The translations under genes were made by a program, and so were the position numbers. The notes beneath the pieces were generated by a model, which did no database searches, was not told the DNA's origin, and saw nothing but the letters and a program-made list of their open reading frames with translations. From contig NZ_CP027707.1 of assembly GCF_003850345.1 (NCBI RefSeq), positions 2,418,001 to 2,482,000 of the forward strand: a stretch of 64,000 bases of DNA, read 5' to 3'. The number at the start of each line of letters is the position of its first letter. Positions within the stretch are counted from its first letter, which is position 1. This stretch comes from Pseudomonas chlororaphis subsp. piscium (GTDB lineage: Bacteria; Pseudomonadota; Gammaproteobacteria; Pseudomonadales; Pseudomonadaceae). This document shows, in pieces, positions 29,914 through 38,441 of the stretch.

Positions 29914-31521
<1,608 letters not shown>

Positions 31522-31573
31522 TTTTATACCTGAAGATAAAAGGCGATAAACAAAGATATAAAATTATCAGCGG

Positions 31574-31596
31574 CTTTGTCTCGAAGACTCGCAAAG
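31574..31596. promoter_or_regulatory. Candidate RtcR upstream activating site
   Basis: CTTTG..CAAAG arms enclosing GTCT-CGA-AGAC: two nested imperfect symmetries about 85 bases upstream of the -24 element. This is a usual distance for an enhancer-binding protein. The binding consensus of RtcR in Pseudomonas is not known to me, so this is position and symmetry only. Confidence 0.4.
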
Positions 31597-31626
31597 GAAA
31601 AATGATTTAAAAATAAAAACGTTATA

Positions 31627-31639
31627 AATCAATTTGTTA
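31627..31639 (+). promoter_or_regulatory. IHF site between enhancer and sigma-54 promoter
   Basis: AATCAATTTGTTA fits the IHF consensus WATCAANNNNTTR at every position. It sits in an AT-rich stretch about 30 bases upstream of the -24 element, where a DNA bend would bring bound RtcR to the polymerase. Confidence 0.7.
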
Positions 31640-31666
31640 AAAAATAATTCACAGGAAAAAATAAAA

Positions 31667-31683
31667 CTGGCACAGCGGCTGCA
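31667..31683 (+). promoter_or_regulatory. Sigma-54 (-24/-12) promoter of the rsr-rtcBA operon
   Basis: CTGGCACAGCGGCTGCA. The GG (31669-31670) and GC (31681-31682) are separated by exactly ten bases. The -24 half is a full TGGCAC, and the -12 half is CTGC in place of TTGC. Transcription should begin near 31694, about 32 bases before the rsr start codon. Confidence 0.85.
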
Positions 31684-31725
31684 ATCTCTCTGGCAACGAA
31701 CAAGACAACAGAGCGAGACGCCAAG

Positions 31726-33276
31726 ATGGCCAACTTCCAGCTGTTCAACACCCAACAGGCAAAAGCGCCAGCGAGCGACACCCTGAACGCTGCCCAGGCC
31801 CCGGCCTATGCCTACAACGCCAAGCACCGCCTGGCCCAACTGGCGGTGACCGGTTGCCTGAACTCGACCTTCTACACCTCGCCTGAAGGTCAGCTGGAAG
31901 CGGTGCTGCAACTGGTGAGCGAAGTCGACAGCCGTTTCGTCGCCCAGGCCGCGCGTTACGCTCGGCAACAGGGTCATATGAAAGACATGCCGGCCTTGCT
32001 GCTGGCGGCGCTGACCGCGCAACGCTCGGCCCTGGTGCCGGAGCTGTTTGCCCAGGTGGTGGACAACGGCAAGATGCTGCGCAACTTCGTGCAGATCCTG
32101 CGCAGCGGGGCGACCGGGCGTAAATCCCTGGGGTCGCAGCCCAAGCGCCTGGTGCAGAACTGGTTGAACAGCGCCACCGAGCGCCAGCTGTTGCAGGCTT
32201 CGGTGGGCAACCAGCCGTCGCTGGCGGACGTGGTCAAGATGGTTCACCCCAAGCCAAGCGAGGCCTGGCGCGCAGCCTTCTTCGCCTGGTTGATCGGCAA
32301 GCCGGTGGATGTGCAGGCGCTGCCTGAGCTGACCCGCGCCTTGCTGGCCTTTCGCAGCGGTGCGACCACGGCTGTGCCGCAGGTGCCGTTCCAGTTGCTT
32401 GGCAACGAAACCCTGAGCCGCGAGCAATGGGCCGAACAGGCGCACAATATGGGTTGGCAGGGGTTGCGCATGAACCTCAACACCCTGGCCCGCCATGGCG
32501 CGTTCCAGGTGCCGGGTTGCACCGAGTATGTGGCGGCGCGGCTGGCGGATGCCGCGGAGGTGGCCAAGGCCCGGGTCTACCCGTACCAGTTGCTGGCGGC
32601 CTACCGCATGGCCGGGGACGAGGTGCCGCAGCCGGTGCGCGAGGCGTTGCAGGATGCTCTGGAGCTGTCCCTGGCCAACGTGCCGGCGCTGCAAGGCGCG
32701 GTGGTGGTGTGCCCGGATGTCTCGGGGTCGATGCACAGCCCGGTCACCGGTTATCGCCAGGGCGCCACCACGGCGGTGCGCTGCATCGATGTGGCGGCAC
32801 TGGTGGCTGCCGCGGTGTTGCGCAAGCAGCCGGCGGCGCGGGTCATGCCGTTCGAGGTGGGGGTGGTGGATATTCGCCTCAACCCGCGGGACAGCGTGAT
32901 GAGCAACGCGCAGAAACTGGCGGCCATCGGCGGTGGCGGGACCAACTGCTCGGCGCCCCTGGCACAGTTGGCCAACGCCAAGTGCAAGGTGGACACCCTG
33001 ATCCTGGTCTCGGACAACGAGTCGTGGATCGATGCGCGGCGCCATGGGGCGACTGAAACCCTGCGCCAGTGGGAGCGGATCAAGGCCATCAACCCGCAGG
33101 CGCGGCTGGTGTGCATCGATATGCAACCCGGGGCCACCACCCAGGCACCGGACCGCGAGGACATCCTCAACGTCGGCGGCTTCAGTGACGCGGTGTTCGA
33201 TGTGATCCAGCAGTTCACCGCGGGCAACTACGGTGCACAGCACTGGGTCGAGGCGATCGAGGCGATGGCGCCCTGA
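31726..33276 (+). CDS. rsr: Ro60-like TROVE-domain RNA-binding protein (Rsr)
   Basis: 516 residues. The N-terminal TROVE/HEAT ring (about residues 20-310) opens with FQLFNTQQAKAPASDTLN and has ARYARQQGHMKDMPALLLAA, where Y RNAs and misfolded RNA ends bind in Ro60. The C-terminal von Willebrand A domain has the MIDAS motif DVSGSMHS (about residue 331) and the later T and D positions (GGGGTNCSAP, LVSDNESW). Bacterial Ro proteins bind Y RNAs and hand structured RNA to exonucleases such as PNPase. Here the gene is followed immediately by five Y-RNA-like elements, which makes the pairing direct. First gene after the sigma-54 promoter. Confidence 0.95.
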   Translation: MANFQLFNTQQAKAPASDTLNAAQAPAYAYNAKHRLAQLAVTGCLNSTFYTSPEGQLEAVLQLVSEVDSRFVAQAARYARQQGHMKDMPALLLAALTAQRSALVPELFAQVVDNGKMLRNFVQILRSGATGRKSLGSQPKRLVQNWLNSATERQLLQASVGNQPSLADVVKMVHPKPSEAWRAAFFAWLIGKPVDVQALPELTRALLAFRSGATTAVPQVPFQLLGNETLSREQWAEQAHNMGWQGLRMNLNTLARHGAFQVPGCTEYVAARLADAAEVAKARVYPYQLLAAYRMAGDEVPQPVREALQDALELSLANVPALQGAVVVCPDVSGSMHSPVTGYRQGATTAVRCIDVAALVAAAVLRKQPAARVMPFEVGVVDIRLNPRDSVMSNAQKLAAIGGGGTNCSAPLAQLANAKCKVDTLILVSDNESWIDARRHGATETLRQWERIKAINPQARLVCIDMQPGATTQAPDREDILNVGGFSDAVFDVIQQFTAGNYGAQHWVEAIEAMAP

Positions 33277-33299
33277 TCGGCAAGACATGAGATAAACCC

Positions 33300-33319
33300 T
33301 GCGCCGCTCACCCGGCGCA
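33300..33319 (+). other. Hairpin between rsr and the Y RNA array
   Basis: TGCGCCG and CGGCGCA pair over a 6-nt loop, 24 bases past the rsr stop. A T5 run (33330-33334) follows after 10 bases, too far for a standard terminator. It may be a weak terminator, or it may protect the 3' end of rsr mRNA after processing. Confidence 0.5.
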
Positions 33320-33341
33320 CGCCGAAGAATTTTTGTTCATT

Positions 33342-33399
33342 GGCCCTGAATGCCGCTGTGACTACATCCAAAGACGTCTCAGCAGATCTTGTCAGGGCC
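33342..33399 (+). ncRNA. Y RNA 1 (minimal, no tRNA-like part)
   Basis: The outer stem GGCCCTGA (33342-33349) / TCAGGGCC (33392-33399) is a perfect 8 bp. It is followed by the array's shared internal-loop strand (GAATGCC). The inner stem GCTGTGAC (33355-33362) / GTCTCAGC (33376-33383) has one mismatch. The apical loop is only 13 nt and starts with the shared TACA. The 3' internal-loop strand ends in CTTG, as in the other copies. It resembles the Ro-binding half of a Y RNA without an effector module. Confidence 0.7.
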
Positions 33400-33405
33400 T
33401 GTGAA

Positions 33406-33490
33406 GGCACGAATACCAGTGGCTGTACATCATGGTTATGCCGGTTCGATTCCGGCGATCAGTCACTCCTTTTGTCGTGCCACCTTTTTT
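33406..33490 (+). ncRNA. Y RNA 2 (carries a lone T-arm)
   Basis: Outer stem GGCACGA (33406-33412) / TCGTGCC (33475-33481). The inner stem AGTGGCTG (33418-33425) / CAGTCACT (33460-33467) is 8 bp with one G-U. The internal loop is the shared one (GAATACC opposite CCTTTTG). The apical part starts TACAT and contains a 5-bp T-arm hairpin GCCGG-TTCGATT-CCGGC (33440-33456) but no D-arm or acceptor-like stem. The outer stem is followed by ACC and six T, a plausible intrinsic terminator or 3' end. Confidence 0.75.
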
Positions 33491-33499
33491 GCAGTTTCA

Positions 33500-33635
33500 G
33501 CGACGAATGCTGATGGAACTACATACCAGATTCGTGATGCGGGTTCGAGTCCCGCCGGTGCCTGAAAAGGTGCCGTAGTTCAAAGGTCAGAACACGAGTG
33601 CACTGTTTCATCGACCCTTGTCGTCGCAGGTTTTT
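33500..33635 (+). ncRNA. Y RNA 3, YrlA-like with permuted tRNA mimic
   Basis: Outer stem GCGACGA (33500-33506) / TCGTCGC (33621-33627), then AGG and five T. Inner stem GATGGAAC (33512-33519) / GTTTCATC (33605-33612). Inside, in 5'-3' order: anticodon-stem 3' strand TTCGT (33531-33535), T-arm GCGGG-TTCGAGT-CCCGC (33539-33555), acceptor-like 7-bp stem CGGTGCC/GGTGCCG closed by a 6-nt loop (33556-33575), D-arm with GTTC/GAAC (33578-33593), and anticodon-stem 5' strand ACGAG (33594-33598). This is a tRNA opened at the anticodon loop and closed at the acceptor end, as in bacterial YrlA RNAs. Confidence 0.85.
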
Positions 33636-33653
33636 CTCCCGCCCGAGCGGGAT

Positions 33654-33761
33654 GGCAGCGAATGCCACAGGTACTACATCGTGTCGCGGGTTCGAGCCCC
33701 GCCAGCCGCAAGGCTGTAGCTCAGTCGGTAGAGCGCATGTGCCTGTTCTCTTGTCGTTGCC
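33654..33761 (+). ncRNA. Y RNA 4, YrlA-like with permuted tRNA mimic
   Basis: Outer stem GGCAGCGA (33654-33661) / TCGTTGCC (33754-33761) with one G-U. The inner stem ACAGGTAC (33667-33674) / GTGCCTGT (33739-33746) is 8 bp with one wobble. The T-arm is GCGGG-TTCGAGC-CCCGC (33686-33702). The acceptor-like stem CAGCC-GCAA-GGCTG (33703-33716) is capped by a GNRA tetraloop. The D-arm GCTC/GAGC (33719-33734) has the loop AGTCGGTA, whose GG is as in real tRNAs. The anticodon-like stem is weak. The internal loop (GAATGCC / TCTCTTG) matches the other copies. Confidence 0.85.
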
Positions 33762-33788
33762 CGCGGGCTTGGCCTGCACCGATTGACC

Positions 33789-33903
33789 CGGCGAATGCCG
33801 GTGGAACTACAGGACAGCGTGGTCGCGGGTTCGATTCCCGCCAACCGCAAGGGGCTAGCTCAGTGGCAGAGCGCGCTGCATGTTTCACCTTCACTGGTCG
33901 CCG
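33789..33903 (+). ncRNA. Y RNA 5, YrlA-like with permuted tRNA mimic
   Basis: Outer stem CGGCGA (33789-33794) / TCGCCG (33898-33903). Inner stem GGTGGAAC (33800-33807) / GTTTCACC (33882-33889). Anticodon-like stem CAGCG (33815-33819) / CGCTG (33874-33878). T-arm GCGGG-TTCGATT-CCCGC (33825-33841). A GCAA tetraloop (33847-33850) is closed by CC/GG, with the rest of the acceptor-like stem poorly paired. D-arm GCTC/GAGC (33858-33872). The internal loop is GAATGCC opposite TTCACTGG. It is the last element, 66 bases before the rtcB start codon. Confidence 0.85.
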
Positions 33904-33932
33904 TTTATGCCGGACCACCGGTCACAGAACAA

Positions 33933-33948
33933 GGTCGGATTTTCGACC
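33933..33948 (+). other. Hairpin just upstream of rtcB
   Basis: GGTCG-GATTTT-CGACC, a 5-bp stem 22 bases before the rtcB ATG. It could be a processing landmark separating the Y RNA array from the rtcB message. Confidence 0.4.
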
Positions 33949-33969
33949 ACAGAAAAAAGAGTCAGGAAC

Positions 33970-35196
33970 ATGGAACACAAGACCTACCAACTGCTGGAAG
34001 TCGCCAACGGCAAGCCGATCAAGATGTGGACCGAGGGCGTGCCCGTGGAAAACGAAGCCCGCCAGCAACTGATGAACACCGCGAAGATGCCGTTCATCTT
34101 CAAGCACCTGGCGGTGATGCCGGATGTGCACCTGGGCAAGGGCTCGACCATCGGCAGTGTGATCCCCACCCTGGGCGCGATCATCCCGGCGGCGGTCGGG
34201 GTGGATATCGGTTGCGGCATGATCGCCGCCCGCACTTCGCTGACCGCAGCCGACCTGCCGGATAACCTGCACGGTCTGCGCAGCGCCATCGAACAGGCGG
34301 TGCCCCACGGCCGCACTTCGCCGCGCAGCGGTCGCGACAAGGGCGCCTGGGGCGACGTGCCGCGCCAGGCCGACCACGCCTGGGCGGCCTTGCACCCACG
34401 CTTCAAGGCGATCACCGACAAGTACCCGGCGCTGGCCAACAGCAACAACCGCCAGCACCTGGGCACCCTCGGCGGCGGCAACCACTTCATCGAGGTCTGC
34501 CTGGATGAGGCCAACCGGGTCTGGTTCATGCTCCACAGCGGTTCCCGTGGCGTGGGTAACGCCATCGGCAACCTGTTCATCCACCTGGCCCAGGCGGACA
34601 TGCGCCAGCACATCGCCAACCTGCCAGACCGCGACCTGGCCTACTTCGAGGAAGGCAGCCAGCACTTCGACGATTACGTCGAGGCCGTGGCCTGGGCCCA
34701 GGATTTCGCCCGGCACAACCGTGAACTGATGATGCAACTGGTGATCCAGGCCACCCGCAAGGTGATCAACAAGCCCTTCGACGTGGCGCTGGAGGCGGTG
34801 AACTGCCACCACAACTACGTGCAGAAGGAGCGCCACTTCGGTGAAGAGGTGCTGGTGACCCGCAAGGGCGCGGTGTCGGCGCAGAAGGGCGAGCTGGGGA
34901 TCATCCCGGGATCGATGGGCGCCAAGAGCTTCATCGTTCGCGGGTTGGGCAACGAGGAGGCGTTCTGCTCCTGCAGCCACGGTGCCGGGCGCACCATGAG
35001 CCGCACCAAGGCCAAGAACACCTTCACCCTGGCCGACCAGATCCGCGCCACCGCCCATGTGGAGTGCCGCAAGGACACAGCTGTGATCGATGAAATTCCG
35101 ATGGCCTACAAGGACATCGACCAAGTCATGCACGCCCAGCGCGAGCTGGTGGAAGTGCTGCACACCCTGCGTCAGGTGGTGTGCGTCAAGGGGTAG
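33970..35196 (+). CDS. rtcB: RNA-splicing ligase RtcB
   Basis: 408 residues, the exact length of E. coli RtcB. It joins 2',3'-cyclic phosphate (or 3'-phosphate) and 5'-OH RNA ends using GTP and manganese. Metal ligands are visible in GVDIGCGM (Cys), LGGGNHFIEV, WFMLHSGSRG (His) and VNCHHNY (His). The guanylated histidine is in CSCSHGAGRTMSR. The start MEHKTYQLL is chosen because it begins the family's first strand; the frame is open into Y RNA 5 upstream but the extra residues have no family character. AGGA lies just before the ATG. Confidence 0.95.
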   Translation: MEHKTYQLLEVANGKPIKMWTEGVPVENEARQQLMNTAKMPFIFKHLAVMPDVHLGKGSTIGSVIPTLGAIIPAAVGVDIGCGMIAARTSLTAADLPDNLHGLRSAIEQAVPHGRTSPRSGRDKGAWGDVPRQADHAWAALHPRFKAITDKYPALANSNNRQHLGTLGGGNHFIEVCLDEANRVWFMLHSGSRGVGNAIGNLFIHLAQADMRQHIANLPDRDLAYFEEGSQHFDDYVEAVAWAQDFARHNRELMMQLVIQATRKVINKPFDVALEAVNCHHNYVQKERHFGEEVLVTRKGAVSAQKGELGIIPGSMGAKSFIVRGLGNEEAFCSCSHGAGRTMSRTKAKNTFTLADQIRATAHVECRKDTAVIDEIPMAYKDIDQVMHAQRELVEVLHTLRQVVCVKG

Positions 35197-35200
35197 AACA

Positions 35201-36544
35201 ATGGACGACATGGATGCAGTGATAGCGGCCCCGCCCAGCTGGCATGACCAGCTGAGCGACTACGAAGCCCGCCGCGTGCGGGAGGTGATGGACACCCTGG
35301 ACAGGCACAGCGCCTGGCTGGAACTGAGCCGCTTCGGCAACGGGTTCGTGCGTCAGGCCGCGGTACGCGGCCTGGCCGCACAGCCTTCGGCAGAGGCCCT
35401 GGCCGCCTTGCTGGAGCGCCTCAACGATTGGGTGCCCCAGGTTCGCCAGGAGGCGGCCGCGGCAGTCGAGGCGTATTGGGCGCCGGAGCACGCCGGGCTG
35501 CTGTTGCAGACCCTGGCACCGTTGCTGGCCCTTACCAGCAAGCAGCGGGCCGACCACGGCGCGACCCTGGAGCGGGCCACCGCGGTGTTGCAACTGGCCC
35601 AGGTGCGCGACGAAGTGCAAGGGGCCTTTGGCGATTGCCGGGGCAAGGCCGCGCGCTTTGTCTTCGAGCTGTTGCTCAAGGGTGTCGAGGACCGGCCGGC
35701 GCTGCTGGCCATGGCGTTGCGTCACCCCGAGGTCAGCGTGCGGCAGATGGCGGTGGATGCCTGCGCCGAACTGCCCGACGAGCAGGCGGTGCCTTTGCTG
35801 GAAGAGGTGATGCGCAGCTGTGGCGCCAGTGTGCGGATCAAGGCCCTGCGGCTGTTGCTGCCGTTGCTGGCCGACCCGGGCGCGCATCTGCGCCAGGCCT
35901 TGCTGGACCCTTCGGGAGCCCTGCGTTGCCTGGCCCACTGGGCGGCGCCGCGTTATCGGCTCGACCCGCGGGAGGTATTGCTGGCCCGGCTGCTCGAGCC
36001 GGCACCGCTGAACAAGCGCGAGTGGCTGGGCCTGCTGGGGCTGGCCAAGGAACTGCGGGAGCCACAGGCCGACGCCATGCTGCAACAGGCCCTCGCCTCC
36101 AAGGCGCTGACCGTGCGCCTGCTGGCCCTGCAAGCCCTTGGCGAGCGTGGCCTGGCCCAGCAGCTGGCGGCCCTGGACGATCCGTCGGACAAGGTCTTCG
36201 ACTGCGCCCTCGGCCTGTTGCGCGAGCAGCCCTGGGCGGCGTTCGAGGAGGCTCTGGAGCAGCGTCTGGACCAGCATTGGCATGACCTGCCCAAGGCGCG
36301 GCGCTGGGCCTTGCTGGGGCTCAAGCCGGGCTGGCGCCAGTTGCAATACCTGCTGCATCGCCTGGACCAGGCGGGCAGCGAGGCAGCTTATTGGCGCGAG
36401 ACCCTGGCCCGTTGGTGCGATGCCCGCTACGCGATGTTCGACCCGGTGACCCCCAAGCCACTGCGAGAAGCACTGGCGCAGCGGTTGCAGGCGATGGAGG
36501 AGGCCGGTGAAGTGCCTCGGGGATCGCTCAAGCGCCTGCTGTGA
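35201..36544 (+). CDS. HEAT-repeat protein in the RNA-repair operon
   Basis: 447 residues, almost entirely helical. Degenerate HEAT repeats are visible as GFVRQAAVRGLAAQPSAEAL, RHPEVSVRQMAVDACAELPD, SGASVRIKALRLLLPLL-like units and LTVRLLALQALGERGLAQQL. There is no catalytic motif, signal peptide or membrane segment. It starts four bases after the rtcB stop, so it is co-translated with rtcB, and lies upstream of a nucleotidyltransferase gene. A scaffold or RNA-binding role with the repair enzymes is inferred from context. It is leucine- and alanine-rich, and the codon use is like that of its neighbours. Confidence 0.8.
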   Translation: MDDMDAVIAAPPSWHDQLSDYEARRVREVMDTLDRHSAWLELSRFGNGFVRQAAVRGLAAQPSAEALAALLERLNDWVPQVRQEAAAAVEAYWAPEHAGLLLQTLAPLLALTSKQRADHGATLERATAVLQLAQVRDEVQGAFGDCRGKAARFVFELLLKGVEDRPALLAMALRHPEVSVRQMAVDACAELPDEQAVPLLEEVMRSCGASVRIKALRLLLPLLADPGAHLRQALLDPSGALRCLAHWAAPRYRLDPREVLLARLLEPAPLNKREWLGLLGLAKELREPQADAMLQQALASKALTVRLLALQALGERGLAQQLAALDDPSDKVFDCALGLLREQPWAAFEEALEQRLDQHWHDLPKARRWALLGLKPGWRQLQYLLHRLDQAGSEAAYWRETLARWCDARYAMFDPVTPKPLREALAQRLQAMEEAGEVPRGSLKRLL

Positions 36545-36612: not shown

Positions 36613-37401
36613 ATGGAACTGCATGAGCGTCACCCGTTGAGCAGCGCCATGCGCGAACGGGTACTGGAAGAGCTGGCGCGGATCGAGCGCGAGCGCAATG
36701 TGCGGGTGCTGTATGCCTGCGAATCGGGCAGTCGGGCCTGGGGTTTTGCCTCCACCGACAGCGATTACGACGTGCGTTTCGTCTATGTGGAGAAGCCCGA
36801 GTGGTTCATCCAGGTGGACTCCGGGCGGGACGTGATCGAGCGGCCTCTGGATGACGAACTGGACATCAGCGGCTGGGAACTGCGCAAGACCCTGGGGTTG
36901 CTGCGCAAGTCCAACCCGACCCTGCTGGAGTGGCTGGATTCGCCCCTGGTGTATCGCAGCGAGCCGGCGGCAACCGCACGCCTGCGCGAGCTGGCGGAGG
37001 CCTTCTACAGCCCGCCGGCGGCCCGCAATCATTACCTGTCGATGGCCAGGAAGAACTTTCGCGGTTACCTGCAAGGCGACAGTGTGCGGTTCAAGAAGTA
37101 CTTCTACGTGCTCCGGCCGTTGCTGGCGGTGCGCTGGATCGATCAGGGGCGCGGCCGCCCGCCGATGATCTTCGCCGACCTGCTGAGCACCGTCGACCAC
37201 CGGCCACTGCTGGACGAGGTGGATGAGTTGCTGGCCTTGAAACGCAGCGCCGACGAGGCCGCTTACGGGCCGAGGCGCCCGGTGCTGCACGCCTTTATCG
37301 CCGCTGAACTGGAACGCCCGGTGCCCAAGCTGGCGCGCACCCATCAAGACAACGCTTTGCTGGACGACTACTTGCGAGACACTGTCCGGCGTTATGCCTG
37401 A
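36613..37401 (+). CDS. Predicted nucleotidyltransferase of the RNA-repair operon
   Basis: 262 residues. The minimal nucleotidyltransferase motif is intact: CESGSRAWGFASTDSDYDVR, with GS followed by the D-x-D metal ligands (Asp at about 54 and 56). The second half (ARKNFRGYLQGDSVRFKKYF, YVLRPLLAVRWI) matches the COG3541-type predicted nucleotidyltransferases often seen with RtcB. It may add nucleotides to RNA or protein ends, or act on a broken tRNA before ligation. Its substrate is not known. ATG preceded by ACAAGGAACC. It lies 68 bases after the HEAT gene and eight bases before rtcA. Confidence 0.85.
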   Translation: MELHERHPLSSAMRERVLEELARIERERNVRVLYACESGSRAWGFASTDSDYDVRFVYVEKPEWFIQVDSGRDVIERPLDDELDISGWELRKTLGLLRKSNPTLLEWLDSPLVYRSEPAATARLRELAEAFYSPPAARNHYLSMARKNFRGYLQGDSVRFKKYFYVLRPLLAVRWIDQGRGRPPMIFADLLSTVDHRPLLDEVDELLALKRSADEAAYGPRRPVLHAFIAAELERPVPKLARTHQDNALLDDYLRDTVRRYA

Positions 37402-37409
37402 GGAATGTA

Positions 37410-38441
37410 ATGAAACAGGATGTCATCGAACTGGACGGCGCCATCGGCGGCGGCCAGGTCCTGCGCAGTGCCCTGAGCCTGTCGATGCTCACCGGCAAGA
37501 CCCTGTGCATCCACAACATACGGGCCCGGCGCAGTCGCCCGGGGCTGCTGCGCCAGCACCTGACCGCGGTGCTGGCGGCGGCGCAGGTCTGCGCGGCCAG
37601 GGTCTTGGGCGCCGAGTTGGGTTCCCGAGCGCTGACCTTCGAGCCGGGGCCGATTCGCGGCGGCGACTACCGCTTCGCCATCGGCACCGCCGGCAGCTGC
37701 ACCCTGGTGTTGCAGACCCTGCTGCCGGCCCTGTTGCAGGCCCCGGAGCCCAGCCGCGTGAGCATCAGCGGCGGCACTCACAACCCGCTGGCGCCGCCGG
37801 TGGATTTCCTCCAGCAGGCCTGGCTGCCGCAACTGCGGCGGATGGGCGGGCAGGTGGAGTTGCAGTTGCTGCGCCATGGCTTTGTTCCCGCCGGCGGCGG
37901 CGAGCTGGAAGCTTTTATCCAGCCCTCGACCCTGCAACCTCTGCACCTGGAACAGCGCGGCGATTTGCTAGGGCGCCGGGCCTGGGCCCTGAGTGCCGGC
38001 CTGCCGGAGCATGTGGCGGAACGCGAATTGCGCCGGGTCGGCACTCGCCTGGAGCTGCCTCGGGAGCACCTGAGCCCGGTGCGGCTGGATGAGCAATGCG
38101 GCCCGGGCAACGTGCTGTTGCTGGAGTTCGTCTGCGAGCACCTGACCGAGCTGTTCAGCGGGTTTGGCCAGAGCAGCCTGCGGGCGGAAAGCGTGGCCGA
38201 CCGCGCCATCGACCAGGCCCGGGACTGGCTGGATTCCGGCGCCGCGGTGGCCGAGCACCTGGCCGATCAACTGCTGCTGCCCATGGCCCTGGCCAGTGGC
38301 GGGAGCTTCACCACCCCGCGCATGACCGAGCACCTGCAAAGCAATATCCGGGTGATCGAGGCGTTTTTGCCGGTGCGTATCGAGTGTTCGACGAGCGCTC
38401 ACGGGGGGCTGCGCGTCGAGGTTCTACCTCAGCGTCATTGA
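37410..38441 (+). CDS. rtcA: RNA 3'-terminal phosphate cyclase
   Basis: 343 residues. It converts RNA 3'-phosphate ends to 2',3'-cyclic phosphates with ATP, giving substrates for RtcB. The N-terminal LDGAIGGGQVLRSALSLSML is the family opener. RARRSRPGLLRQHL is a conserved basic motif. The adenylated histidine lies in AEHLADQLLLPMALA (His at about 290). GSFTTPRMTEHLQSNI closes the catalytic domain. It follows the nucleotidyltransferase gene by eight bases. With rtcB in the same operon the cell can take a damaged end and reseal it. Confidence 0.95.
   Translation: MKQDVIELDGAIGGGQVLRSALSLSMLTGKTLCIHNIRARRSRPGLLRQHLTAVLAAAQVCAARVLGAELGSRALTFEPGPIRGGDYRFAIGTAGSCTLVLQTLLPALLQAPEPSRVSISGGTHNPLAPPVDFLQQAWLPQLRRMGGQVELQLLRHGFVPAGGGELEAFIQPSTLQPLHLEQRGDLLGRRAWALSAGLPEHVAERELRRVGTRLELPREHLSPVRLDEQCGPGNVLLLEFVCEHLTELFSGFGQSSLRAESVADRAIDQARDWLDSGAAVAEHLADQLLLPMALASGGSFTTPRMTEHLQSNIRVIEAFLPVRIECSTSAHGGLRVEVLPQRH

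What the first reader, a model, noticed from the sequence alone, without database searches (positions are those of the whole stretch)
33342..33903. Tandem array of five Y-RNA-like elements between rsr and rtcB
Each element has the same design: an outer stem of 6-8 bp ending in (C)GA, the internal-loop strand ATRCY, an 8-bp inner stem, TACA, a variable apical part, the inner stem's other arm, a 7-8 nt internal-loop strand that usually ends in TTG, and the outer arm. The stems differ completely in sequence between copies yet pair in every copy (for example GATGGAAC/GTTTCATC, ACAGGTAC/GTGCCTGT, GGTGGAAC/GTTTCACC), which is compensatory variation. Known bacterial Y RNAs (YrlA) sit near Ro genes, usually one or two. 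Five in a row in a sigma-54 RNA-repair operon, sharing one internal loop, point to a set of paralogous partners for the adjacent Ro protein.
Basis: partly seen in the sequence, partly recalled or inferred. Interest (0 to 1): 0.92.

Follow-up and report, generated by a model that had tools for sequence, protein, structure and literature searches.

The report
Ordered array of five Y RNAs
Between two RNA-repair genes this Pseudomonas carries five related small-RNA genes that share one end, thought to grip a ring-shaped protein, but differ at the other end from a bare loop to a near-complete tRNA look-alike; such sets turn out to be usual beside this protein, here in a full and well-kept form.

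Summary
Y3, Y4 and Y5 match Rfam YrlA (63.0, 68.5, 70.2 bits; gathering 69). Y1 is a bare stem-loop of the YrlB kind; Y2 carries only a tRNA T-arm. Paralogous partners for Rsr: supported by comparison, untested.

Corrections: several Y RNAs beside Rsr are the rule. 81 of 81 fetched rsr loci hold 2-6 elements (23 hold five); at a stricter score 80 of 81 hold 2-5 and one holds one. The stems covary but do not "differ completely".

Added: the far ends form a graded series (none, T-arm, whole permuted tRNA) in fixed order; in 62 of 63 loci with both kinds every short element precedes every T-arm/D-arm-bearing long one. Y1 to Y5 stay in order in 32 Pseudomonas loci, which differ mainly by loss. P. 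sputi and another species show no tRNA mimic. An enteric-type rsr operon seems to hold a third Y element after yrlA.

Verdict: Y RNAs of a known kind in a little-described ordered array, most likely competing adaptors for one Rsr ring. No expression or binding data.

The parts
33342..33399 (+). Y1: short (S class, YrlB-like) Y element; 8-bp outer stem, 8-bp inner stem with one mismatch, 13-nt apical loop, no tRNA-like part
   Evidence: Descriptor score 38; R1 60.5 bits, though Y1 is in the training set; no Rfam Y RNA match up to E 10; folding z 0.41
33406..33481 (+). Y2: M class Y element; apical part holds a tRNA T-arm hairpin only
   Evidence: Descriptor score 38; folds as drawn, z -2.67; Rfam YrlB only 15.8 bits against gathering 97; not found by R1
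33500..33627 (+). Y3: F class (YrlA-like) Y element with T-arm, 7-8 bp acceptor-like hairpin and D-arm
   Evidence: Rfam YrlA 63.0 bits, below gathering 69; R1 43.3 bits, not in training
33654..33761 (+). Y4: F class (YrlA-like) Y element
   Evidence: Rfam YrlA 68.5 bits, gathering 69; not found by R1
33789..33903 (+). Y5: F class (YrlA-like) Y element
   Evidence: Rfam YrlA 70.2 bits, above gathering; R1 31.6 bits; covariation in two apical helices across 18 orthologues
33638..33651 (+). Small GC hairpin in the Y3-Y4 spacer (CCCGC/GCGGG), whose stem varies in relatives with pairing kept; possible processing or protective hairpin
   Evidence: Sequence; alignment of relatives read by eye
31726..33276 (+). 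rsr, Ro60 orthologue
   Evidence: Pfam vWA_Ro60 and TROVE; PDB 2nvo, Rsr, E 9e-26
31668..31683 (+). sigma-54-type site TGGCACAGCGGCTGCA, ending 42 nt before the rsr start
   Evidence: One mismatch to the pattern; by itself not significant (4 matches in the window, 5.2 expected). With the window's variant letter allowed, a like site lies upstream of rsr in 69 of 81 loci and in 0 of 413 control segments
29914..31521 (-). rtcR, divergent sigma-54 activator
   Evidence: Pfam RtcR and Sigma54_activat
33970..35196 (+). rtcB, RNA ligase
   Evidence: Pfam RtcB, E 3.4e-132
35204..36544 (+). HEAT-repeat protein of the operon
   Evidence: Pfam HEAT_2
36613..37401 (+). RlaP nucleotidyltransferase of RNA-repair pathways
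   Evidence: Pfam RlaP, E 1.5e-96
37410..38441 (+). rtcA, RNA 3'-phosphate cyclase
   Evidence: Pfam RTC

Best explanation
The array is five bacterial Y RNA genes co-transcribed with rsr from an RtcR/sigma-54 promoter (inferred). Each RNA has the same base (outer stem ending GA, loop ATRCY, inner stem, TACA, second loop ending T-N-G, outer arm), taken to be the Rsr-binding site by analogy with Salmonella and Deinococcus Y RNAs. They differ at the far end: Y1 has none, Y2 a T-arm, and Y3-Y5 a circularly permuted tRNA (T-arm, closed acceptor, D-arm) in which the Y stem takes the place of the anticodon arm. Likely mechanism: the RNAs are cut from the polycistronic transcript and compete for one Rsr ring. 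Y3-Y5 (perhaps Y2) tether PNPase or another tRNA-reading protein to Rsr; Y1 occupies and gates Rsr without tethering. The mix sets how much Rsr is a decay machine and how much is free or locked. Shown here: homology, structure by covariation, co-location, ordered conservation, separate upkeep of the paralogues. Inferred: transcription, processing, binding, tethering, division of labour.
For: Rfam YrlA on Y3-Y5. R1 finds Y1, Y3 and Y5 and the known enteric YrlB (36.9 bits), so short and tRNA-like elements share a base. Covariation: S class 13 of 17 pairs changed on both sides, 179 such cells against 44.3 in shuffles; M class 12 of 15 pairs, 162 against 55.4; two Y5 apical helices that played no part in picking elements, 5 of 5 and 4 of 5 pairs. 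Order: in 62 of 63 loci that hold S and long T- or D-arm elements, every S comes first. Y1 to Y5 in order in 32 Pseudomonas loci, bar one Y1-Y2 duplication and one unlabelled element; nearest neighbour by apical part alone carries the same core label in 56 of 56 cases against 33% by chance, so the copies are not homogenised. R1 hits of 54 bits or more: 16 genomes, all among the 17 rsr carriers of 149 Pseudomonas. In relatives the Y stem binds Rsr and a two-hairpin region with a T-arm binds PNPase (PMC6181284 passages; PMC8394870 passages).
Against: No expression, processing or binding data. F elements are lost easily: 10 of 32 Pseudomonas loci keep the full Y1-Y5 set, strain NFIX28 lacks only Y4, and P. 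sputi shows no tRNA mimic, so the tRNA-like copies may be redundant. Y2 is in 32 of 32 loci but its apical part is the least conserved (0.54 against 0.81 for its core), a poor fit to a specific effector end. Y5 outer and inner stems show no two-sided change. R1 misses Y2 and Y4 and the enteric YrlA. The tRNA-like parts do not point clearly to one tRNA.
Confidence: 0.6

Rival explanations
1. Dosage: each transcript is translated into many Rsr proteins but yields one copy of each Y RNA, so tandem copies simply raise the Y RNA supply; the copies are equivalent and their far ends drift.
For: F copies are lost singly without visible pattern; the Y2 apical part drifts; P. ovata L013 has a duplicated Y1-Y2 block.
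Against: No homogenisation: 56 of 56 apical nearest neighbours are orthologues. S before long T/D-arm elements in 62 of 63 loci. The Y1 loop is well conserved (0.81) and two apical helices of Y5 covary.
Confidence: 0.2
2. tRNA decoys: Y3-Y5 are baits or competitive inhibitors for the nucleases, ligases or modification enzymes that act on cleaved tRNAs when the operon is on, with Rsr as the holder.
For: In Salmonella the operon answers to tRNA fragments, and the authors name competitive inhibition of the anticodon nuclease by YrlA as one possibility (PMC7790460 passages). In the F domain the Y stem replaces the anticodon arm; by a permissive rule 110 of 113 F elements have an acceptor-like helix abutting the T-stem and 1-2 nt before the D-stem.
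Against: Does not explain Y1 and Y2, which are kept in species without a detected tRNA mimic. Fragments of Salmonella YrlA were not detected (passage).
Confidence: 0.12
3. Cis elements: the hairpins stay in the rsr-rtcB mRNA and act on stability or rtcB translation, not as separate RNAs.
For: No sigma-70-type promoter and no plus-strand terminator were found by consensus scan in 31500-34000.
Against: The design is that of YrlA and YrlB, treated as noncoding RNAs in the papers whose passages I read. In 5 of the 81 loci no rtcB match lies in the fetched stretch (one of them ends about 0.7 kb after rsr), yet 3-6 elements follow rsr. In several viral contigs elements lie upstream of rsr.
Confidence: 0.06
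4. Decaying tandem duplicates of one YrlA, with Y1 and Y2 as truncated relics.
For: Real relics exist: L017 and L008 keep a 5' half of a lost element.
Against: Y1 and Y2 are the most retained elements (29 and 32 of 32 Pseudomonas loci), their classes have covarying stems, and Y1 has a YrlB counterpart in enterics.
Confidence: 0.02

Closest known systems
YrlA (Rfam RF02553), tRNA-mimicking bacterial Y RNA
   Same: Y3, Y4 and Y5 share stem design, ATGCY loop, TACA, T-arm, closed acceptor hairpin and D-arm; they match the model end to end.
   Different: Three adjacent, diverged copies; only Y5 passes Rfam's gathering score; the acceptor-like hairpin of Y3 is as long as a tRNA's (7-8 bp).
YrlB (Rfam RF02565), short Y RNA of the enteric rsr operon
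   Same: Y1 has the same base, no tRNA-like part, and the first place after rsr; R1 finds both Y1 and YrlB.
   Different: Y1 is shorter (58 nt against a 78-position model) and does not match the Rfam YrlB model.
Deinococcus radiodurans Y RNA / RYPER (Rsr, Y RNA, PNPase)
   Same: Works like: Rsr next to Y RNAs; Y2 has a T-arm end like the PNPase-binding end described in PMC6181284 (passage).
   Different: Not compared by sequence here; PNPase binding untested; the passage describes one tether, not a graded set.
Salmonella rsr-yrlBA-rtcBA RNA-repair operon
   Same: rtcR divergent from rsr - Y RNAs - rtcB ... rtcA, under sigma-54 control (PMC7790460 and PMC9879122 passages).
   Different: Two Y RNAs named there, five here; here also a HEAT-repeat gene and rlaP. 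An enteric-type copy read here has a third, unnamed Y element.

Membership tests
Bacterial Y RNA (broad) | Encoded next to an rsr (Ro60 orthologue) gene | tested here: met
   rsr 31726-33276, vWA_Ro60/TROVE and PDB 2nvo
Bacterial Y RNA (broad) | Long stem of 5' and 3' ends with a conserved internal-loop region | tested here: met
   5 of 5 elements; covariation for the S and M classes; Y5 stems conserved without two-sided change
Bacterial Y RNA (broad) | Discrete small RNA bound by Rsr | not testable with these tools
   Needs RNA-seq or Northern and co-purification
YrlA (RF02553): Y5 | Covariance-model match at or above gathering score (69 bits) | tested here: met
   70.2 bits
YrlA (RF02553): Y3 and Y4 | Covariance-model match at or above gathering score (69 bits) | tested here: not met
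   63.0 and 68.5 bits, end to end but below the cut-off; they work like YrlA by layout
YrlA (RF02553): Y1 and Y2 | Covariance-model match at or above gathering score (69 bits) | tested here: not met
   No YrlA match up to E 10
YrlA (RF02553) | tRNA-like domain: T-arm, acceptor-like hairpin, D-arm | tested here: met
   Y3, Y4, Y5; not Y1 or Y2
YrlA (RF02553) | Carries tRNA modifications; substrate of TruB and DusA | not testable with these tools
   Reported for YrlA (PMC8394870 passage)
YrlB (RF02565) | Covariance-model match (gathering 97 bits) | tested here: not met
   Y1 no match; Y2 15.8 bits
YrlB (RF02565) | Works like YrlB: Y base without tRNA-like end, first after rsr | tested here: met
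   Y1; R1 bridges Y1 and YrlB
RYPER-type tether | Apical part binds PNPase | not testable with these tools
   Binding assay needed
tRNA | Complete tRNA with anticodon arm | tested here: not met
   ARAGORN finds no tRNA in the window. Rfam's tRNA model passes its cut-off once (30.0 bits against 29) at 33710-33849, from inside Y4 to inside Y5

The most novel reading that the evidence does not exclude
Rsr does not have 'a' Y RNA but an ordered kit. One Rsr-gripping base is combined with graded effector ends (bare loop, T-arm or T-arm plus acceptor, whole permuted tRNA), short ones first and tRNA-like ones last, in proteobacteria and with mixed sets also in predicted phages. Rsr can work with no tRNA mimic at all (P. 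sputi), and the enteric rsr-yrlBA-rtcBA operon carries a third, overlooked Y RNA.
Probability: 0.45. Interest if true: 0.65.

Novelty: new variant of a known kind. Interest (0 to 1): 0.5.

Why it matters
In the passages I could read, bacterial Y RNAs appear as a single tether (Deinococcus) or a pair (Salmonella). A fixed-order set with graded ends makes a specific question testable: does Rsr change partner according to which Y RNA it holds? Natural strains that differ by one element (NFIX28 without Y4) or show no tRNA mimic (P. sputi) are ready-made comparisons. A short-element model that, among 149 Pseudomonas genomes, gives strong hits only in rsr carriers offers annotators a handle on Y RNAs that Rfam misses, including a probable third one in an enteric-type operon.

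Tried and rejected
Single-sequence folding as proof: weak for Y1 and Y4, so comparison was used. Rfam alone: misses Y1 and Y2. The four YrlA hits of 36-43 bits in Pseudomonas genomes without rsr: in three (G009, G105, G096) the hit spans two adjacent tRNA genes, in the fourth (G130) it overlaps one tRNA gene, and the descriptor finds nothing there; weaker hits of about 28-33 bits were not followed. Mimicry of one particular tRNA: halves of the Pseudomonas F elements were compared with 43 distinct tRNA sequences of this genome. The 3' halves come nearest to tRNA-Asp and tRNA-Gly (mean score 0.65-0.79, against 0.63 between real tRNAs of different amino acids); the 5' halves come near none (0.50-0.57 against 0.65). 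So a tRNA-Asp or tRNA-Gly flavour of the T side is possible, no clear identity. Anti-phage defence: PADLOC has no match for Rsr, RtcB or RlaP, only a weak HEAT match. Encoded CCA after the acceptor strand: flagged in two loci, L049 and L078, among the 57 F elements with an acceptor helix of 7 bp or more. Myxococcus phage Mx1 rsr locus: no element within 3.5 kb. R1 across the wider class: 3 of 369 genomes, and 6 of 99 in one family, with filters that lose weak matches.

Literature: the papers I took to be central (Chen 2013, Chen 2014, Sim and Wolin 2018, Wang 2018, Sim 2020, Wolin 2013) are not in the library; two further look-ups also failed. So the published number of Y RNAs per species could not be checked and the novelty rating carries that doubt. 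Passages only were seen of PMC7790460, PMC8394870, PMC9879122, PMC7765460, PMC7824862, PMC4726728, PMC6181284 and PMC12282133; other papers only as search listings. No held paper has both 'yrlC' and 'Y RNA'.
Full report
WHAT WAS CLAIMED AND WHAT IS THERE. The five elements exist at the stated coordinates. A descriptor scan puts them at 33342-33399 (Y1), 33406-33481 (Y2), 33500-33627 (Y3), 33654-33761 (Y4) and 33789-33903 (Y5), scores 36-39. All other hits on either strand of the 64-kb window score 35 or less; 12 of 200 dinucleotide shuffles of the gap gave one hit, none above 32. Rfam's YrlA model matches Y5 (70.2 bits), Y4 (68.5) and Y3 (63.0) end to end; its gathering score is 69. Y2 reaches only 15.8 bits with YrlB, and Y1 matches no Y RNA family. 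A covariance model, R1, built from 50 short elements of many species (Y1 the only one from the window), gives three matches in the window at E up to 10: Y1, Y3 and Y5; it misses Y2 and Y4. Single-sequence folding is not proof: z-scores are 0.41, -2.67, -2.36, -0.76 and -1.89.

SURROUNDINGS. Upstream is rsr with Ro60 domains, whose best sequence match among solved structures is Rsr, 2nvo. Divergent to it is rtcR. Between them lies TGGCACAGCGGCTGCA at 31668-31683, one mismatch from the sigma-54 pattern used. In the window alone such matches are no more frequent than chance (4 found, 5.2 expected). With the window's variant letter allowed, a site of this form lies within 260 bp upstream of rsr in 69 of 81 loci and in 0 of 413 control segments of rsr coding sequence. 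Downstream follow rtcB, a HEAT-repeat gene, rlaP and rtcA. A consensus scan found no sigma-70-type promoter and no plus-strand terminator in 31500-34000, so the RNAs would have to be cut from a long transcript (inference). Named relatives place the genome in Pseudomonas.

HOW USUAL IS A SET? With a refined descriptor at score 40 or more, 81 of 81 hold 2-6 elements, 303 in all: 12 loci with two, 26 with three, 17 with four, 23 with five, 3 with six. At 46 or more there are 297 elements; 80 of 81 loci hold two to five and L081 one. At 50 or more there are 277, with one locus at none and three at one. So the sixes rest on weak elements. Where no rtcB match lay in the stretch (5 loci), up to 2.5 kb after rsr was scanned. 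At 40, shuffled gaps gave 2 hits in 185,433 bases and rsr coding sequence 14 in 250,716; at 44, 0 and 1. A first, different rule gave 0 hits in 405 shuffled gaps. In whole-locus scans at 46 or more, 297 hits fall in the gap on the rsr strand and 5 elsewhere. The descriptor recovers YrlB and YrlA of an enteric-type operon as Rfam calls them.

CENSUS IN THE GENUS. Of 149 Pseudomonas genomes, 17 have rsr. R1 gives hits of 54 bits or more in 16 genomes, all among these 17; one genome without rsr has a marginal 27-bit hit. Descriptor counts in the 17 are five in 7 (G000 counted from the window), four in 1, three in 8, two in 1. Across the wider class R1 hits 3 of 369 genomes, with filters that lose weak matches; the two new ones hold three and four elements by descriptor.

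THREE KINDS OF FAR END. By apical part the 303 elements were sorted by rule into S (short loop, 75), M or m (up to 60 nt, with or without a strict T-loop, no D-arm, 85), F (T-arm plus D-arm, 113) and others (30). By a permissive rule (5-8 bp, one mismatch allowed), 110 of 113 F elements have an acceptor-like helix that abuts the T-stem and leaves 1-2 nt, mostly UA, before the D-stem. That is tRNA geometry, circularly permuted, with the Y stem where the anticodon arm would be. Consistent with this, the YrlA model also fires across adjacent ordinary tRNA genes. In 62 of 63 loci with S and F-type elements (F, or long ones with only a T- or D-arm) every S precedes every F-type; L078 is the exception. 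In 68 of 68 loci with M/m and F-type the last F-type lies after the last M/m.

COVARIATION. S class: 13 of 17 pairs have changes on both sides, 96.5% of cells pair, 179 two-sided cells against 44.3 in shuffles; slid versions reach at most 59% paired. M class: 12 of 15 pairs, 99.1% paired, 162 against 55.4. These elements were picked by a rule that requires pairing, which inflates the percentage paired. Y5 across 18 Pseudomonas orthologues: the outer and inner stems hardly vary and show no two-sided change. Two apical helices that were not used for picking do: the anticodon-stem-like helix in 5 of 5 pairs (90% of cells paired) and the acceptor helix in 4 of 5 (80.5%). The T and D stems are nearly constant. 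I drew the structure from rows of that alignment, which favours it somewhat.

ORTHOLOGUES, NOT RECENT COPIES. In 32 Pseudomonas loci core sequences label elements Y1 to Y5 in the same order, with one Y1-Y2 duplication (L013, P. ovata) and one unlabelled first element (L025). Ten keep Y1 to Y5; Y2 is in 32 of 32 and Y1 in 29 of 32. With labels from the core and similarity from the apical part alone, the nearest neighbour in another locus (under 95% similar) has the same label in 56 of 56 cases against 33% expected. In five near relatives (L005, L006, L007, L009, G061) elements are 84-98% identical and spacers 66-83%, L009 lacking Y5; in the more distant G073 spacers are at 64%, Y1 also at 64%, and Y2-Y5 at 82-93%. 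Strain NFIX28 (L004, rsr 98% identical) lacks just Y4, with the junction at the TTGTCG shared by element ends, which keeps the Y3 outer arm intact. Mean alignment score per length in Pseudomonas, core and apical: Y1 0.77 and 0.81, Y2 0.81 and 0.54, Y3 0.87 and 0.73, Y4 0.78 and 0.74, Y5 0.84 and 0.73.

LOSS OF tRNA MIMICS. P. sputi (L017) and Pseudomonas sp. Irchel s3h14 (L008) keep only Y1 and a Y2 without a T-loop, plus a 5' remnant of a lost element. The YrlA model finds nothing at E 0.001 in either whole genome. A third genome, G016, looks the same, though one search used stricter filters. L017 and L008 are the only 2 of 81 loci with no strict T-loop. From memory, Chen 2014 states that at least one Y RNA per species has a tRNA-like domain; I could not read that paper, and these species would be exceptions.

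BEYOND BACTERIAL CHROMOSOMES. Of 32 predicted viral contigs with an rsr relative (two pairs look like duplicates), 7 have no element at score 46 or more, 25 at least one and 19 at least two, up to six (counted, which also lists two non-viral loci). Hits lie 78 on the rsr strand and 1 on the other. Myxococcus phage Mx1 has none within 3.5 kb.

A THIRD ELEMENT IN AN ENTERIC-TYPE OPERON. Two records labelled Salmonella and Escherichia phage (unverified organism, probably host DNA) hold the end of rsr, YrlB (Rfam 105.5 bits), YrlA (70.9 bits) and then a further element, L195:925-1033, before rtcB. Rfam does not list it at E 0.001. It has the outer and inner stems, ATGCC, TACA, T-arm, second hairpin and TTG, folds as drawn (z -2.62), and is found by R1, whose training loci include no enteric (22.7 bits, E 1.7e-4, E-values rough). 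R1 finds YrlB (36.9 bits) but not YrlA there. The Y elements printed for the two records are the same; their rtcB pieces are 91% identical. The RtcB belongs, at 99% identity, to an unnamed cluster of 3,087 sequences; named hits at 82-88% are Escherichia, Enterobacter, Klebsiella and Phytobacter. The source species is thus not settled. E. coli genomes and plasmids have no near match, and a class sample of 369 genomes only 22-base matches. The passages read in PMC7790460 and PMC9879122 name only yrlB and yrlA.

MECHANISM. In relatives the Y stem binds Rsr, and a two-hairpin region, one like a T-arm, binds PNPase (PMC6181284 passages; PMC8394870 passages). In Salmonella the operon is switched on by tRNA fragments ending in 2',3'-cyclic phosphate (PMC7790460 passages). 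The simplest reading is one Rsr with competing adaptors: Y1 as lock without tether, Y3-Y5 as tethers to PNPase or other tRNA-reading proteins, Y2 between. Against it stand the easy loss of F copies and the drift of the Y2 end, which keep a pure dosage explanation alive.

VERDICT. A Y RNA array of a known kind, with order, grading and long-kept paralogues as the new part. Interest 0.5, held down because several Y RNAs per species are probably known to specialists and because nothing here is functional evidence.

Noticed in passing
L195:925-1033 (and L196:1078-1186): Probable third Y element between yrlA and rtcB of an enteric-type rsr operon, not listed by Rfam at E 0.001 and not named in the passages read. 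Source species unsettled.
   Followed up: partly
L017, L008, L084 (G016): Pseudomonas loci with Rsr but no detected tRNA-mimicking Y RNA; a 5' remnant of a lost element remains in L017 and L008.
   Followed up: partly
one F element in many betaproteobacterial arrays, e.g. L034, L038, L044, L062, L066: Exactly 7-bp acceptor-like stem closed by an 8-nt loop resembling A/G-N-A-U-C-A-G-G; purpose unknown, not counted formally.
   Followed up: no
L049 element 5, L078 element 4: Alphaproteobacterial F elements with CCA after the acceptor strand, as if from a junction of two tandem tRNA genes.
   Followed up: no
L095 (G108): rsr reads as two overlapping pieces, one with a TAA inside, yet five Y elements remain, the first at the score limit. 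Described only.
   Followed up: no
window 33638-33651: Spacer hairpin before Y4 whose stem changes in relatives with pairing kept (CCCGC/GCGGG, CCCAC/GTGGG in L009).
   Followed up: no
L163, L165, L175 and other predicted viral contigs: Phage-like contigs with rsr and up to six mixed Y elements on the rsr strand.
   Followed up: partly
first element in L037, L038, L041, L044, L045, L047, L054, L056, L058, L065: Another class with an apical part of 53-55 nt that looks like a junction of two hairpins without a T-loop.
   Followed up: no
window 35204-36544: HEAT-repeat protein inside the RNA-repair operon, found in some fetched loci and not in others, within the limited flanks held; weak PADLOC HEAT match.
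   Followed up: no
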